Source: Planctomycetota bacterium
GTDB lineage: Bacteria; Planctomycetota; UBA1135; GCA-002686595
Reading direction: 5' to 3'
NCBI GenBank assembly: GCA_028278425.1
Contig: JANQEJ010000037.1
Coordinates: 1 to 64,000, forward strand
DNA length: 64,000 nucleotides
Both the position numbers and the translations under genes were made by a program. The notes beneath the pieces were generated by a model. The model searched no databases. It was not told the DNA's origin and saw only the letters and a list, made by a program, of their open reading frames with translations. Each line of letters opens with the position of its first letter. Positions within the stretch are counted from its first letter, which is position 1. Shown here in pieces: positions 22,648 to 28,836 of the stretch.

Positions 22648-23925
22648 GTGAGCGACCTACTCGCAGCACGGTGGCTCATGGCGATCTCCCTCGGCTTCCA
22701 CATCCTCTTCGCGGTCGCCGGCATGGCGATGCCGGTGCTGCTGCTGACCGCGGAGCTCGCGTGGCAACGGACGCGCGATCCGGAGTGGATCGAGCTCGCC
22801 GTCCGGTGGGCCAAGGGCACGGCGATCCTCTTCGCCGTCGGCGCGGTCAGCGGCACGGTGCTCTCGTTCGAGCTCGGCCTTCTGTGGCCCGGCTTCATGG
22901 AGCACGGCGCGCTGATCGGCGTGCCGTTCACGTTGGAGGGTTTCGCGTTCTTCTTCGAGGCGATCTTCCTCGGCGTCTACCTCTACGGGCGGGAGCGCAT
23001 CTCCCCGGGGATGCGGGTCTTCTCCGTCGCGGCGATCGCCGCGTCCGGGCTCGCGAGCGGCGTCTTCGTCATGGCGGTCAACGCCTTCATGCAGAGCCCG
23101 GCGGGGATCGACGACCCCGACCCCTGGATCGCCTTCCGCAGCCCGGCCTTTCCCTACCAGGCGGTTCACATGGCCCTGGCGGCCTACCTCTCGGTCGCCT
23201 TCCTCCTCGCCGGGATCCACGCGGCCGGCCTCCTGCGATCGCCGGGGAGCGCCCTCCACCGCAAGGCCTTGAAGATCGCCCTCGCCTTCGCGATCCCGCT
23301 CGCGCCGTTGCAGCTCGTCAGCGGCGACCTGTCGGCCAAGTACGTGGCCGACGACCAGCCGATCAAGTTCGCCGCGATGGAGGCGCACTTCAGGACGGCC
23401 GAGCGCGCGCCGCTGCACGTCGGCGGGCTTCCGGACGTCGAAGCGCGCGAGCTGCGCGGCGCGCTGCCGCTGCCCGGGTTCCTCTCGTTCCTCGCCCACG
23501 GCGACTTCGAGAGCGAGGTCTTAGGCCTCGAGGAGTTCCCCGAGGAGCTCTGGCCCAACGTCACCTTCGTACACGTCGCCTTCGAGGTGATGGTCGTCGC
23601 GGGTGGCGCGATGGTGCTCGCGTCGCTCGTCGCGGCGTTCCTCTGGATCCGGCGGCGGCGAGCGCCGGAGAACCGCTGGTTCCTGCGCGCGCTCGTGCTG
23701 CTCGCGCCCGCCGGCCTGATCGCCACCGAGGCCGGCTGGATGGTGGCCGAGGTCGGGCGGCAGCCGTGGATCATCCGCGGCGTGCTGCGCACCGCCGACG
23801 CCGTGACGACCAACGAGGGCGTGATCTATCCGCTCGTCGGCTTCAGCCTCCTCTACGTGCTGCTCGGCGTCTCCGTCGTCGTGCTGCTGCGCCGACACGT
23901 CTTCGCCGCGGAGGAAGGCCGGTGA
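22648..23925 (+). CDS. cydA: Cytochrome bd ubiquinol oxidase subunit I
   Basis: Heme-bearing subunit of the high-affinity, non-proton-pumping quinol oxidase. The 425-residue protein starts at GTG 22648 and has the first heme-ligand helix (LGFHILF, His18), the conserved FTLEGFAFFFEAIFLG with the paired glutamates near the oxygen site, and GRQPW in the late helices. The short Q-loop region places it in the shorter CIO-like group rather than the long E. coli form. It overlaps cydB by four bases (GTGA). Such oxidases support growth at low oxygen and under oxidative stress. Confidence 0.95.
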   Translation: MSDLLAARWLMAISLGFHILFAVAGMAMPVLLLTAELAWQRTRDPEWIELAVRWAKGTAILFAVGAVSGTVLSFELGLLWPGFMEHGALIGVPFTLEGFAFFFEAIFLGVYLYGRERISPGMRVFSVAAIAASGLASGVFVMAVNAFMQSPAGIDDPDPWIAFRSPAFPYQAVHMALAAYLSVAFLLAGIHAAGLLRSPGSALHRKALKIALAFAIPLAPLQLVSGDLSAKYVADDQPIKFAAMEAHFRTAERAPLHVGGLPDVEARELRGALPLPGFLSFLAHGDFESEVLGLEEFPEELWPNVTFVHVAFEVMVVAGGAMVLASLVAAFLWIRRRRAPENRWFLRALVLLAPAGLIATEAGWMVAEVGRQPWIIRGVLRTADAVTTNEGVIYPLVGFSLLYVLLGVSVVVLLRRHVFAAEEGR

Positions 23926-24884
23926 CCCTCCCCGTCGTCGCGCTCGGGCTGATCGGCTTCGCGATCGTCGTGTACGCGTTGACCGGCGGCGCCGACTTCG
24001 GAGCCGGCGTGTGGCACCTCCTCGCGACGGGACCCCGCGCCAAGGACCAGCGCAAGGCCGTCGCGCAGGCGATCGGCCCGGTGTGGGAGGCGAACCACGT
24101 CTGGATCCTCTTCGCGCTGATTCTCCTCTTCACCTGCTTCCCGGGCGCGTTCGTCGCGATCGCGAGCGAGCTCAACGTCCCGATCACGCTGGTGCTCGGG
24201 GGCATCGTCCTGCGCGGCAGCGCCTTCGTGTTTCGCTCGTACGGGATGCTCGCCGCGACCGGCAAGCTCTGGTGGAACGCGGTGTTCGGCCTGACCAGCG
24301 TGTCCACGCCGCTGTGTCTCGGGATCATGGTCGGCGGCATGAGCGCCGGAGGGGACTGGGCCAGCCCGTTCGCGTTCGCCGTCGGTGTGCTCGCCCTGGT
24401 CATCTTCGCGTTCCTCGCGGCGGTCTATCTCGCGTGCGTGACCGCGGGCGAGCTGCGCGAGGACTTCCGCCGCCGGGCGATCGCCGCCGGCATCCTCGCC
24501 GGCGTCGTGGCCGTCGGCGTGAACCTCCTCGCCGCGGACGCCGCGCCGCGGGTCTACGGCAACCTGACCGACGGCGCGCTGCGGAAGCTCCTCCTGTTCG
24601 GGACGCAGGCCCTCGCGTTGGGCACGCTTGCCGCGCTCTTCCTCCGACGCGTCGCGATCGCACGCTTCGGTGCGATCGTCCAGGTCGCCGCGATCCTCGC
24701 GAGCTGGGGCCTCGCCATGGACGGCACGCTGGTCCTGTCCGAGACCTTCCCGATCGAGGCCGCCGCGTCGCCGCCGGAGGTGCTGCGCACGGCGCTCGCG
24801 ATCTCCGCCGGGGGAGCCGCGCTGCTGACGCCCGCGCTCGTCTACTTGATGCGCGTGTTCAGGGGCGGCGCCTCGCCCGGATAG
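23922..24884 (+). CDS. cydB: Cytochrome bd ubiquinol oxidase subunit II
   Basis: A 320-residue membrane subunit with eight or nine helices, showing ALTGGADFGAGVWHLLA near the start, the conserved IGPVWEANHVWILF and FRSYG. It starts at GTG 23922 overlapping cydA. No small cydX-like gene follows. Its last 43 bases overlap the 3' end of the convergent AhpD-like selenoprotein gene, so the two transcripts are complementary at their ends. Confidence 0.95.
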   Translation: MTLPVVALGLIGFAIVVYALTGGADFGAGVWHLLATGPRAKDQRKAVAQAIGPVWEANHVWILFALILLFTCFPGAFVAIASELNVPITLVLGGIVLRGSAFVFRSYGMLAATGKLWWNAVFGLTSVSTPLCLGIMVGGMSAGGDWASPFAFAVGVLALVIFAFLAAVYLACVTAGELREDFRRRAIAAGILAGVVAVGVNLLAADAAPRVYGNLTDGALRKLLLFGTQALALGTLAALFLRRVAIARFGAIVQVAAILASWGLAMDGTLVLSETFPIEAAASPPEVLRTALAISAGGAALLTPALVYLMRVFRGGASPG

Positions 24885-25444
24885 GGATCCATCTCGGGCT
24901 CCATCTCGACGTGCACCGCGTCGGCCACGCGGTTGATGTAGTTGAAGTAGGAGACCACCTGGATGGCGTCGTGAATCCCGACGTCGTCGAAGCCGGCGTT
25001 CCGCAGCGCCTCGACGTCGAGCTCCGTCATCTTCCAGGGCGTCCGCGTCAGCTTCTCGGCGTACGCACAGAGCGCGTAGTCCGCCTTCGCCAGGTCCGCG
25101 CGCCGCCAGTCGGTGGAGATCGCGTGGACGAACCGGTCGCGCTCCTCGTCGCTCAGGTCGGAGACCTCGTCCCGGAGGTCCCAGGCGTGCGCCTGGATTC
25201 AGTAGTGGCACTCGTTGGTGACGCTGACGACGACCGCCAGCATCTCGCGCTGCCGGCGCGAGAGCGAGCTGCGCCCGAACATCGCGCGCTTGTAGAGCTC
25301 CATCGAGGCCTCGAGCGTCGGCGGCGTGAGGCTCATCACGCGCAGGATCCCGAACACGCGCCCGGCGCGCTTCTTCGCGGCGTCGTAGATCTTCGCGAGG
25401 AGCCCCTCGGCGTCCTCGGGCGAAACGGTGCGAATCCAGGCCAA
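24842..25444 (-). CDS. AhpD/CMD-family selenoprotein (CxxU), TGA at 25199-25201 read as Sec
   Basis: Read through one in-frame TGA, this is a 200-residue peroxidase-related protein of the AhpD/carboxymuconolactone decarboxylase superfamily. The start MAWIRTV, the LSRRQREMLAVVVS helix and the late SYFNYINRVADAV are typical. The active site reads Glu78-Cys79-His-Tyr-Sec82-Ile-Gln-Ala-His86, exactly the E-C-x-x-C-x-x-x-H pattern with Sec at the second Cys. The 118 codons after the TGA stay open and family-like. TTG 25444 is the only start codon after an upstream in-frame TAG. AhpD-like selenoproteins are known from marine metagenome surveys. Peroxide or thiol-disulfide activity is inferred. Confidence 0.8.
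25161..25182 (-). promoter_or_regulatory. Candidate bacterial SECIS hairpin of the AhpD-like gene
   Basis: On the minus strand GGGACCTC (25182-25175) pairs with GAGGTCTC (25168-25161), eight pairs with one G-U, around the six-base loop CGGGAC with G in second place. The loop begins 25 bases after the TGA, within the bacterial SECIS range. A second perfect hairpin, CCAGGC-GCAC-GCCTGG, lies between the TGA and this one but is too close to the TGA. Confidence 0.55.
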
Positions 25445-25513
25445 GGCGGCACCGTAGGGGCCGCCCTACGGTTTCGTCAAGTGTCGCCGCGTCTCGGCCG
25501 ATAACCCCAGGCG

Positions 25514-25801
25514 ATGGACTCTGAACCCTACGAGAGCTTGTCGGAGGAGCCGGAGGAGCGGAAGCACGACCACGGCTACCACCAGGTGGCGGACAAGGTC
25601 GGCCTCGTCCCCAACGTCCGCATGAAGGACAACCTGATCCAGGGGATCACCTGCCTCACCTTCGCGCTGCTCGCCGGCCTGGTCGGCGGCGTCACCACCG
25701 GACACGGGATGGGCATCCTGAGCGGCTGCCTGCTCGGACTGATCATCGGCGGCTTCGTCAGCGGCGGCGCGCTGATGGTCATCGGCCTCTTCCGCCGGTA
25801 G
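25514..25801 (+). CDS. Small two-helix membrane protein of unknown function
   Basis: A 95-residue protein: an acidic, His-rich cytoplasmic start (about 1-40, with SLSEEPEERKHDHGYH), then two glycine-rich membrane helices (about 43-64 and 66-92) ending in RR. Coding appearance is good (third-position G/C, clear topology), but no family is recognised. It faces the TTG-start AhpD-like gene across a 69-base gap and converges with the next gene, whose stop is one base away. Confidence 0.6.
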   Translation: MDSEPYESLSEEPEERKHDHGYHQVADKVGLVPNVRMKDNLIQGITCLTFALLAGLVGGVTTGHGMGILSGCLLGLIIGGFVSGGALMVIGLFRR

Positions 25802-26260
25802 TTACCTCTTCCGGAACGGCACGTTCTGCACCCACGTCTCGAGCCACGAGGCGTGCCGCCGCTTGATGCCCGCGAGCTCCTCGCAAACGCGCGCGCGCTC
25901 GACGTCGCCCAGCTCGGCGAAATGGGCGCGATACTCGGTGTACCACCGCGCGACGGTGCTCTCGGCGTCCTGGCAGAGCCGCAGCGCGAAGCGCAGCCCG
26001 AAGACCAGCGTCGCGGCGACGATGACCCAGGCGGCGACGCGCCGGCGAAAGCGACCGGCGGGCGGCTTCGCGCCGAGCCCCCGCATCAACGTCCGAACGC
26101 GCTCGACGAGCTCGCGCTCGTCCTCGGCCAGGCGCTCGAGCACGCGCTTCAGCTCGACGTCGCGCGTGCGCCGGCGGAGAAGCGGATAGAGCGCGCGCGC
26201 GCCGAACTCCGAGCGCAGGGCGAGGACCATGTCCTCGAGCAGCGCCCGGTGGTCGGCCAC
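25802..26260 (-). CDS. Hypothetical membrane-anchored helical protein
   Basis: A 152-residue protein starting at GTG 26260. The first 65 residues form helices (RALLEDMVLALRSEFGARAL, KRVLERLAEDERELVERV) that look like a short ferritin- or bacterioferritin-like helical pair but lack an evident iron-binding Glu/His set. A single membrane segment follows (VAAWVIVAATLVFGLRFAL) and then a basic/aromatic C-terminal helix. It begins 4 bases after the stop of the M1 aminopeptidase gene and is probably in its operon. Function unknown. Confidence 0.6.
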   Translation of the reverse strand: MADHRALLEDMVLALRSEFGARALYPLLRRRTRDVELKRVLERLAEDERELVERVRTLMRGLGAKPPAGRFRRRVAAWVIVAATLVFGLRFALRLCQDAESTVARWYTEYRAHFAELGDVERARVCEELAGIKRRHASWLETWVQNVPFRKR

Positions 26261-26264
26261 GCGG

Positions 26265-28766
26265 CTACCCGTCGACGCCGGTGCCGCCGAGGGCGGCCTC
26301 GATGGCGCGTCGCTGCACGCCGTCGAGCGCGCGCGGGTAGTACGCCGCGAGCAGGCGGCGGGACTCGGGGTTGTCGAGCGCCGCGAGCGCCTCGACGGCG
26401 GCGGTGCGGAGACGGTAGGGCTCGCAGTCCAGGAGCTCGCCGATCGCCTTGGCGTTGGCGATGCGCTTCTTCGGGAGCTCGGCGAGCCGCCGCACCGCGA
26501 CGGCGCGCGCGGTCGGCGAGGCCGCCTCGTCGCGCGACCAGCGCAGGAGCTGATCGCGGACGCCGCCGTCGTCGAGCTGCCCGAGGTGGTTCAGCAGGAA
26601 CTCGCGCAACTGGTCGTGGGGCGAGTCGAGGTAGAGCTTGCCGACGATCCAGTCGAAGGCGCCGTCGGGGTCCGCGCTGCACACGAGGCCCGCCGCCGCG
26701 CCCATCGTCGCCCAGCTATAACCGTCGTCGAAGCGCTCGCGCGCGAAGCGTGCCAGGTCCTTGTTCTCGCCCCAGGCCGAGAGCGCCTCGAGCGAGGCGG
26801 TGCGGACCGGCGCCTCGTCGTCGCGCGACGCGGCCTCCTTCAGGCGCTCGCGCGCCTCCAGGCCCTGCGCCTCGCCGAGGGCGTGAGCGGCGGCGGCGCG
26901 GACCCAGGGGCTCGTGTCCTTGCGCAGGCGGTCGACGATCGTCGCGACGCAGAGGTCGTGCTTCTCGGGATCGCGCGTCCGGTCCATCGCGGCGATGCGG
27001 CCGATCGCGCGCATCGCGTCGCGCCTGCCGGTGACGTCGTCGTCCTGCTCGGCGATGGCGATCCACTCCGCCACCGACTTGTTCCAGCGCATCCCCTTCG
27101 GGATCCACGAGCCCTTGTCGAAGCGGACGTAGACCGGCTCCGCCTGGGCGGAGAGCTCGAAGCGCTGCCGGCGGCGCGTCACCTCGATCCGGTGCGCCGC
27201 GACGCCGGTGCGGTCGCGGATCTCGACGGCGACCGGCGTGCGGAAGACCTCCGGCGTGCCGCCGTCGGCCTTCTGAAGCTGTTGAACGTCGAGCTCGACC
27301 ACGCGATCGTCCTCGTCCCACTTCCACTTGACGTCGAACTCCGGATACCCGCGGCGGTAGAACCACTGGTCGAAGAACCAGTCGAGCTCGCGCCCCGAGG
27401 TCTCCTCGACCACGCGGTGGAAGTCCGCCGTCTCCACGTTGCGGTCGGCGAACGCGGCGACGTAGGCGCGCACGCTTTCGCGGAAGGCGTCGTCGCCGAG
27501 CACGAAGCGGAGCGCGTGGAGCCGGACGGCGGCGCCTTCGTACACGTGCTCGTCGAAGAGGTCGCCCGGCTCGCGGTAGCGGTTCCACACGGTGGGCTCG
27601 CGATTCCGGCCGCGGTCGTGCTCCTGGTACGCCTCCTGATACTCGCGCACGTCCGCGCGGAGCTCGTCGACGCCGCGCGACGCCTCGATGTAGAGGAGCT
27701 CGCAGTACGTCGCGAAACCCTCGTTGAGCCAGATGTGCGACCAGTCGTTGCACGTGATCAGGTCGCCGAACCACTGGTGCGCGGCCTCGTGCACGACGAG
27801 GTCGAGCGACTGGTGGTCGCGGTTGCCGCGTTCGTCGTCCAGCGTGAGCGGCGTGAGCGTCGTGGCCGAGATGTTCTCCATCCCGCCCCACGGGAAGTTC
27901 GCGACGCAGGCCTGGCTGTACTTCGAGTACGGGTACCGGACGCCGGTGAAGTCGGAGAGGAACGCGAGCGCCTCGTCCGTCTCGTGGAAGCTCGCCTCCA
28001 TCCAGTCGGCGTACTGTTCCTCGGCCGCGTACCAGAGCTCCACGTCCTCCCAGCTCTCGCGCACGACGTGCAGGTCGCCCGCGACCAGCGTGATCAGGTA
28101 GCACGCGTGCGAGCGGTCCATGCGCCAGTGCTCGGTCCGCCTTCCGTCCGCTTCCGAGGATTCGAGCCGCTCGCCGGCGGCGATCGAGATCCAGGCGGCG
28201 GGCATGGTCACCCGCACCTCGGAGGTCAGCCGGTCGGAGGGGTGGTCGAAGCACGGGAACCAGCCGCGGCTCTCGTCGCACTGGCCCTGGGTGAAGACCT
28301 GGTTCGGGACGCCCCCGCCGTCGTCTCCGGAGAACCAGAGCCCCAGGCGCGGGCGGCCGCGGTAGGAGACCTCGACGGAACCGGCGGCTCCGGCCGCCAG
28401 CGGCTCCGCCAGGTCGATCGCCAAGCGCCCCCCCTCGTGCGCGAAGGTCAGGGGCCGGCCGGCGCCGTCGACCACGCCGCTGACCTCGAGGCCGAGGAGC
28501 TCGAGCTCCAGCACGTCCAGCCCGGCGGTGGTGGAGGCGAAGTCGACGCGGCAGGAGGCCACGATCCCGCGGTCCGCGGGCTGGAGCTCGACGTCGATCG
28601 CGTAGTGCTGGACGTCGAACCCTCGCTCGGGGACCTCGTGGGCCGTGAGCGGCGGGAACTCGACGCGCTCGGGACGCTCGCGGGTGGCGTCGCAGGCGGT
28701 GAGGAACAACCCGAGGGTCGGCGGGACGAGCGACAGGAAACGCATGGCTTGGGTTCGGAAGGACAT
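26265..28766 (-). CDS. M1-family aminopeptidase lipoprotein with HEAT-repeat tail
   Basis: A zinc aminopeptidase of the M1 (gluzincin) family, about 833 residues. It starts with a lipoprotein signal (FLTAC lipobox), then the N-terminal saddle domain, the substrate loop GGMEN (in place of GAMEN), the zinc site HEAAH with the third ligand in NEGFATY, and the later catalytic Tyr region. The C-terminal 270 residues are HEAT-like repeats (for example DTSPWVRAAAAHALGEAQGLEARERL) instead of the usual ERAP-type domain. ATG 28766 is chosen; ATG 28745 would give a neater lipoprotein signal, and TTG 28778 is also open. It would trim peptides in the periplasm or at the surface. Confidence 0.9.
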   Translation of the reverse strand: MSFRTQAMRFLSLVPPTLGLFLTACDATRERPERVEFPPLTAHEVPERGFDVQHYAIDVELQPADRGIVASCRVDFASTTAGLDVLELELLGLEVSGVVDGAGRPLTFAHEGGRLAIDLAEPLAAGAAGSVEVSYRGRPRLGLWFSGDDGGGVPNQVFTQGQCDESRGWFPCFDHPSDRLTSEVRVTMPAAWISIAAGERLESSEADGRRTEHWRMDRSHACYLITLVAGDLHVVRESWEDVELWYAAEEQYADWMEASFHETDEALAFLSDFTGVRYPYSKYSQACVANFPWGGMENISATTLTPLTLDDERGNRDHQSLDLVVHEAAHQWFGDLITCNDWSHIWLNEGFATYCELLYIEASRGVDELRADVREYQEAYQEHDRGRNREPTVWNRYREPGDLFDEHVYEGAAVRLHALRFVLGDDAFRESVRAYVAAFADRNVETADFHRVVEETSGRELDWFFDQWFYRRGYPEFDVKWKWDEDDRVVELDVQQLQKADGGTPEVFRTPVAVEIRDRTGVAAHRIEVTRRRQRFELSAQAEPVYVRFDKGSWIPKGMRWNKSVAEWIAIAEQDDDVTGRRDAMRAIGRIAAMDRTRDPEKHDLCVATIVDRLRKDTSPWVRAAAAHALGEAQGLEARERLKEAASRDDEAPVRTASLEALSAWGENKDLARFARERFDDGYSWATMGAAAGLVCSADPDGAFDWIVGKLYLDSPHDQLREFLLNHLGQLDDGGVRDQLLRWSRDEAASPTARAVAVRRLAELPKKRIANAKAIGELLDCEPYRLRTAAVEALAALDNPESRRLLAAYYPRALDGVQRRAIEAALGGTGVDG

Positions 28767-28836
28767 GGCGCGGCTCAAGTTAGCAAACCGCCGCGCACCG
28801 TTGAGTCGGCGGGATGGATCCTGATGATGAACGCGG

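What the first reader, a model, noticed from the sequence alone, without database searches (positions are those of the whole stretch)
24842..25444. AhpD-like selenoprotein with Sec at the resolving position (C-H-Y-U)
Seen: the TGA at 25199-25201 (minus) replaces the second Cys in E-C-x-x-C-x-x-x-H. The next 118 codons stay open and family-like. A strong eight-pair hairpin with a CGGGAC loop starts its loop 25 bases after the TGA. Known: AhpD-like Sec proteins have been reported from marine metagenome surveys. Its 3' end overlaps cydB by 43 bases on the opposite strand, linking it in position to the bd oxidase.
Basis: partly seen in the sequence, partly recalled or inferred. Interest (0 to 1): 0.8.

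Follow-up and report, generated by a model that had tools for sequence, protein, structure and literature searches.

The report
Planctomycete AhpD-like selenoprotein with CxxU motif
A bacterial gene that looks broken by a stop codon is almost certainly read through with the rare amino acid selenocysteine, giving a peroxide-handling enzyme; such AhpD-like selenoproteins are already catalogued, so this is a well-supported new member rather than a surprise.

Summary
Minus-strand TGA 25199-25201 interrupts a 200-codon frame (24842-25444) at the second position of an AhpD motif (C-H-Y-U-x3-H), where solved homologues have Cys. It is conserved: 80/80 related loci in public genomes (Planctomycetota, Chloroflexota and a few other phyla, including the complete Pla86 genome), 30/30 in the closest genomes, plus a second TGA paralogue here. 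The hairpin after the TGA is kept by compensatory changes and synonymous-codon constraint (all six inner pairs in 64% of 116 sequences; 12% in synonymous shuffles). The assembly carries selA, selB, selD (itself with an in-frame TGA) and tRNA-Sec(UCA). AlphaFold gives the AhpD fold (pLDDT 92).

Three points of the reading need correction. Sec lies at the second Cys, which in M. tuberculosis AhpD is the exposed attacking cysteine, not the resolving one. The cydB overlap is peculiar to this genome: none of 80 related loci has cydAB nearby; recurrent neighbours are an M1 aminopeptidase and a ferritin-like protein. The assembly has one cydA, not two.

The family (TIGR01926, CxxU) has been catalogued since the Sargasso Sea survey of 2005. 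Real, well supported, a new member of a known kind.

The parts
24842..25444 (-). AhpD-like selenoprotein gene (TIGR01926 'peroxidase-related enzyme'), 200 aa with Sec at codon 82; TTG start at 25444 matches the start of homologues (x-W-I-R)
   Evidence: translation with TGA=U; TIGR01926 133 bits, cut-off 81.8; closest homologues share start and TGA column
25199..25201 (-). in-frame UGA read as selenocysteine (second position of C-H-Y-U)
   Evidence: TGA at this column in 80/80 genome loci, 30/30 closest and 29/30 phylum-wide; Cys in solved homologues
25161..25182 (-). bacterial SECIS hairpin GGGACCUC-CGGGAC-GAGGUCUC, apical loop beginning 25 nt after the UGA
   Evidence: fits the published bSECIS rules (G in first two loop positions, 16-37 nt spacing; PMC13188914)
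25802..26260 (-). ferritin-like / rubrerythrin-family protein, 152 aa, recurrent upstream neighbour on the same strand
   Evidence: Pfam Rubrerythrin 31.8 bits, cut-off 22.8; upstream on the same strand in 20 of 73 loci with at least 1.5 kb of upstream flank
26265..28778 (-). M1-family aminopeptidase with HEAT repeats, recurrent upstream neighbour on the same strand
   Evidence: Pfam Peptidase_M1 158 bits; within 1.5 kb upstream on the same strand in 22 of 73 loci
22648..24884 (+). cydA (22648-23925) and cydB (to 24884), convergent, overlapping the selenoprotein gene by 43 bases; not a conserved neighbour
   Evidence: Pfam; no cydA/cydB hit in the flanks of 80 related loci; single cydA in the assembly

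Best explanation
The gene encodes a 200-residue AhpD-like (TIGR01926) thiol/selenol oxidoreductase. UGA at codon 82 is decoded as selenocysteine by tRNA-Sec and SelB acting at a SECIS hairpin 17-38 nt downstream (recoding is inferred from conservation, codon constraint, covariation and presence of the machinery; there are no protein data). The Sec replaces the second Cys of the AhpD C-x-x-C and sits in the same five-residue arrangement (Glu67, Cys79, Tyr81, Sec82, His86) as the proton-relay site of characterised AhpD proteins. Most likely the selenolate attacks a peroxide or an oxidised partner such as a peroxiredoxin, Cys79 resolves it to a selenenylsulfide, and an unidentified reductant restores it (inferred from AhpD chemistry). 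The general role is peroxide or thiol redox defence.
For: TGA at the exact Cys column in 80/80 loci from several phyla, 30/30 closest, 29/30 phylum-wide, including the Pla86 complete genome (L099). The family score continues across the TGA. SECIS: Leu codon +8 is CTC in 85/87 against 41% elsewhere in the genes; Arg codon +9 is CGT/CGG in 86/87 although CGC makes 57% elsewhere; C-G to U-A exchange at one pair; all six inner pairs in 64% of 116 sequences against 12% (max 22%) in synonymous shuffles; covariation above 500/500 shuffles and all slid controls; non-Sec homologues mostly lack the motif. Machinery in the same assembly: tRNA-Sec UCA, SelB 357 bits, SelA 496 bits, SelD 314 bits with its own TGA. 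SelA is found in 127 of 134 relatives with a strong TGA-AhpD match, the 7 exceptions being fragmented MAGs, against 51 of 65 others (Fisher p 0.0009). AlphaFold pLDDT 92, nearest PDB entries 2pfx, 2prr, 6k40, 2oyo at Z about 25. Spacing Glu-12-Cys-2-Tyr-1-Sec-4-His equals PA0269 Glu36-Cys48-Tyr50-Cys51-His55; these residues are invariant in 37 homologues.
Against: No direct protein or expression evidence. Enzymatic activity, partner and reductant are inferred; TIGR01926 itself is only 'peroxidase-related'. The window hairpin alone is not significantly more stable than shuffles. The genomes are mostly MAGs, and the Sec genes lie on other contigs than the window, so correct binning is assumed. 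The codon and covariation tests do not correct for shared ancestry.
Confidence: 0.95

Rival explanations
1. The TGA is a true stop: the gene is a pseudogene, or a sequencing or assembly error in an ordinary Cys enzyme.
For: An in-frame stop in a MAG of 364 contigs is compatible with error a priori.
Against: Same TGA at the same column in 80/80 loci from several phyla, including a complete chromosome; intact frame on both sides with coding signal; conserved SECIS and Sec machinery.
Confidence: 0.01
2. UGA is recoded by another route (genome-wide UGA reassignment or a near-cognate suppressor), giving Trp or Cys rather than Sec.
For: An open frame under a recoded UGA does not by itself name the amino acid.
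Against: In the coding-signal scan only this TGA of the window looks like a read-through site; tRNA-Sec with UCA anticodon, SelB, SelA and SelD are present; the hairpin follows the bSECIS rules and its loop keeps G[G/U]; the position equals an active-site Cys.
Confidence: 0.02
3. Selenoprotein as stated, but the enzyme is not a peroxide-defence protein: the Sec attacks another bond, for example carbon-halogen, as in the AhpD-fold debrominase Bmp8 (its mechanistic likeness to Sec-dependent deiodinases is recalled from memory).
For: Bmp8 structures 6ohi/6ohj are among the fold matches, Z 19; the catalytic role of TIGR01926 proteins is not established.
Against: Only 13-16% identity to Bmp8, against 22-34% to the peroxidase-related proteins; the AhpD proton-relay residues are all kept; no dehalogenation genes were noticed next to it (not searched systematically).
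Confidence: 0.07
4. The gene acts with the convergent cydAB bd oxidase as one oxygen/peroxide unit.
For: 43-base overlap in this genome.
Against: Opposite strand; no cydA or cydB match in the flanks of 80 related loci, nor in the shorter flanks of the 29 closest; in several relatives the ASPIC/FG-GAP gene that lies beyond cydAB here is directly downstream of the selenoprotein gene, so cydAB looks inserted.
Confidence: 0.03

Closest known systems
AhpD-like selenoprotein, CxxU, TIGR01926 (Sargasso Sea survey 2005; listed in a 2026 review)
   Same: Same family model, same CxxU motif, bacterial SECIS just after the UGA (PMC1088965, PMC13188914)
   Different: Here placed in a planctomycete genome with its full Sec machinery, with a strongly conserved SECIS sequence and a clade in which every sampled member keeps Sec
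AhpD-like 1 (COG2128), Global Ocean Sampling survey
   Same: CxxU, 299 Sec sequences reported (PMC2398784)
   Different: That survey counted 902 Cys homologues; in the clade sampled here no Cys member was found
NF041238 AhpD_rel_CFYUT selenoprotein
   Same: Related AhpD domain with a C-x-Y-U motif
   Different: Longer family (357 positions); 76 bits against a cut-off of 175, so not a member
D. radiodurans AhpD 6k40 and D. geothermalis 2oyo (Cys forms)
   Same: Same fold, 32-34% identity, Z about 25
   Different: CxxC instead of CxxU
M. tuberculosis AhpD (1gu9)
   Same: Same active-site residues and spacing; same fold, Z 11.7
   Different: About 11% identity; reduces AhpC there, not tested here

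Membership tests
bacterial selenoprotein (UGA-recoded) | in-frame UGA aligned with a conserved functional Cys | tested here: met
bacterial selenoprotein (UGA-recoded) | bSECIS: hairpin with G in the first two loop positions, loop 16-37 nt after the UGA | tested here: met
   loop CGGGAC at +25; conserved G[G/U], covariation and codon constraint; rules from PMC13188914
bacterial selenoprotein (UGA-recoded) | SelA, SelB, SelD and tRNA-Sec in the genome | tested here: met
   (same assembly, other contigs)
bacterial selenoprotein (UGA-recoded) | selenium or Sec demonstrated in the protein | not testable with these tools
   needs 75Se labelling or mass spectrometry
TIGR01926 peroxidase-related / AhpD-like | score above the curated cut-off | tested here: met
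   133.3 bits, cut-off 81.8
TIGR01926 peroxidase-related / AhpD-like | AhpD fold with the Glu, Cys, Tyr, Cys/Sec, His relay residues | tested here: met
   residues named in PMC3141380
TIGR01926 peroxidase-related / AhpD-like | peroxidase activity or reduction of a peroxiredoxin | not testable with these tools
   needs purified protein
NF041238 alkylhydroperoxidase-related (seleno)protein | score above the curated cut-off | tested here: not met
   76.3 bits, cut-off 175
functional unit with cytochrome bd oxidase | conserved neighbourhood with cydAB in relatives | tested here: not met
   0 of 80 loci
AhpD-fold reductive dehalogenase (Bmp8-like) | close sequence relation to Bmp8 | tested here: inconclusive
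   fold match Z 19 but 13-16% identity; not among profile hits at E 0.01

The most novel reading that the evidence does not exclude
A Sec-locked AhpD clade: across Planctomycetota, Chloroflexota and a few other phyla this subfamily has kept Sec without reverting to Cys, because the enzyme catalyses a reaction for which Cys is not adequate (for instance a peroxide or carbon-halogen chemistry special to these bacteria), possibly working with the neighbouring ferritin-like protein.
Probability: 0.12. Interest if true: 0.55.

Novelty: new member of a known kind. Interest (0 to 1): 0.3.

Why it matters
It shows that an apparent stop in an uncultured planctomycete gene is a Sec codon, and that this class of AhpD is overwhelmingly a selenoprotein in its phylum, so ordinary annotation cuts the protein at residue 81 of 200 or loses it. 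The clade also offers a clean test of why Sec is kept: all 130 sequences of the main clade in the tree are Sec, and Pla86, whose complete genome is on record, carries a copy, so the advantage of Sec over Cys in AhpD chemistry could be measured.

Tried and rejected
The first genome-contig scan with the single protein found nothing because its patterns were too specific; repeated with an alignment. Single-sequence folding was uninformative: 51-nt z -1.4, 95-nt z +1.0, and a 36-nt cut folds differently, so the SECIS case rests on the comparison. The Rfam scan of the window gave only RNase P, which says nothing for or against a SECIS. Rejected: sequencing error, UGA reassignment, cydAB linkage, membership of NF041238. 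The careful tree did not finish in time; the quick tree (SH-aLRT support only) is used, and the placing of the long-branched Cys rows in it is unsure. A literature search for the Bmp8 debrominase found no paper in the library.

Full report
What is there. On the minus strand, 25444 to 24842 reads as 200 codons with one TGA at codon 82 (25201-25199) and a TAG stop. The conceptual protein matches TIGR01926 'peroxidase-related enzyme' over residues 2-184 with 133 bits (cut-off 81.8) and Pfam CMD, so both sides of the TGA belong to one domain. Solved homologues (6k40, 2oyo) have Cys where the TGA stands. The TTG at 25444 aligns with the start of relatives. Scoring in-frame TGAs of the window for coding signal on both sides ranks this one first.

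Conservation of the TGA. The window and the 29 best matches in related genomes (L022-L050) all have TGA at the column, as does a 43%-identical paralogue elsewhere in this genome. An alignment-based search of public genomes returned 80 loci: TGA in 80 of 80. They come from Planctomycetota, Chloroflexota, Acidobacteria, Calditrichia and Gemmatimonadales records and include the complete genome of Planctomycetes bacterium Pla86 (L099), whose copy is identical to that of a genome of the window's own family. The search pattern did not include the Sec codon, so it did not select for TGA. A query with a Cys-type Deinococcus protein over 294 genomes of the phylum still returned mostly TGA forms (29 of the best 30 confirmed at the column). 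In a quick tree the main clade of 130 rows is all Sec; Cys or other residues lie on long branches near the base. The sets of loci overlap in part, since some genomes occur in both collections.

SECIS. Aligned without gaps from the TGA, 88 distinct sequences show a stem at positions 20-26/33-39 (0 = T of TGA) and a six-base loop C-G-[U/G]-N-N-N. The Leu codon on the stem is CTC in 85 of 87 (41% elsewhere in the same genes); the Arg codon at the loop is CGT 58, CGG 28, CGC 1, although CGC is the main Arg codon elsewhere. C-G is exchanged for U-A at 23-36, and 20-39 shows six pair types. On 30 sequences the percentage paired, the cells with two-sided changes and the covariation score exceed all 500 shuffles and every slid register. 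With synonymous shuffling that keeps the proteins, all six inner pairs appear in 12% on average (maximum 22%) against 64% observed in 116 sequences. Non-Sec homologues mostly do not show the motif. Shared ancestry inflates formal probabilities, so the point is the pattern, not the p value. The hairpin agrees with the published bSECIS model (PMC13188914).

Machinery. The assembly has tRNA-Sec with UCA anticodon, SelB, SelA and SelD, which itself has an in-frame TGA, all on other contigs than the window. Of 199 genomes searched, 178 match SelA; 127 of 134 with a strong TGA-AhpD match have it, and the seven without are fragmented MAGs. One relative without SelA (G170) has a Cys form.

Structure and mechanism. 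AlphaFold2 with 37 family rows gives pLDDT 92 and the AhpD fold; the nearest solved structures are peroxidase-related proteins, Z about 25. Glu67, Cys79, Tyr81, position 82 and His86 are invariant and have the spacing of the proton-relay residues of PA0269 (Glu36, Cys48, Tyr50, Cys51, His55) and of M. tuberculosis AhpD (Glu118, Cys130, His132, Cys133, His137) (PMC3141380). In the latter the second Cys, Cys133, cross-links to AhpC while Cys130 is partly buried (PMC6626918). Recoding is strongly supported by comparison; the catalytic steps and the partner are inferred.

Neighbourhood. cydA (22648-23925) and cydB (to 24884) are convergent with the gene, but no related locus has them nearby, and the assembly has one cydA. 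The recurrent neighbours are upstream on the same strand: an M1 aminopeptidase (within 1.5 kb in 22 of 73 loci) and a ferritin-like protein (20 of 73). The ASPIC/FG-GAP gene lies downstream on the opposite strand in 13 of 73. Here cydAB lies between the selenoprotein gene and that ASPIC gene.

What is known. AhpD-like CxxU selenoproteins were described in the Sargasso Sea data (27 sequences, PMC1088965) and in GOS (299, PMC2398784), and are listed under TIGR01926 in a 2026 review (PMC13188914). Sec use by planctomycetes is also published (PMC4807772). The gene is therefore a new, very well supported member of a known kind.

Noticed in passing
window 25452-25471: Perfect 8-bp palindrome (CCGTAGGG-CGGC-CCCTACGG on the minus strand) in the gap between the selenoprotein start and a divergent + strand ORF at 25514; it occurs once in the window and the leader folds more stably than shuffles (z -2.7). 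A regulatory or translational role is possible.
   Followed up: partly
window 25802-26260 (-): Ferritin-like/COQ7-like protein with a possible membrane-spanning middle, a recurrent upstream neighbour of this selenoprotein in relatives; family weakly assigned.
   Followed up: partly
L131 (G000:C155:566-1507): SelD of the same genome has an in-frame TGA, so it is probably a selenoprotein itself.
   Followed up: no
L002 1501-2034 (G000:C189): Second AhpD-like paralogue with TGA at the same column (CHYU) but a poor match to the conserved SECIS pattern at that register.
   Followed up: partly
L169 (G222:C155): Neighbouring paralogues in one planctomycete, one with CHYU and one with CEYL at the active site: a Sec gene beside a copy without Sec or Cys there.
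   Followed up: no
window 25514-25801 (+): 95-residue divergent ORF with a likely membrane segment, no clear family and no match in the flanks of related loci.
   Followed up: no
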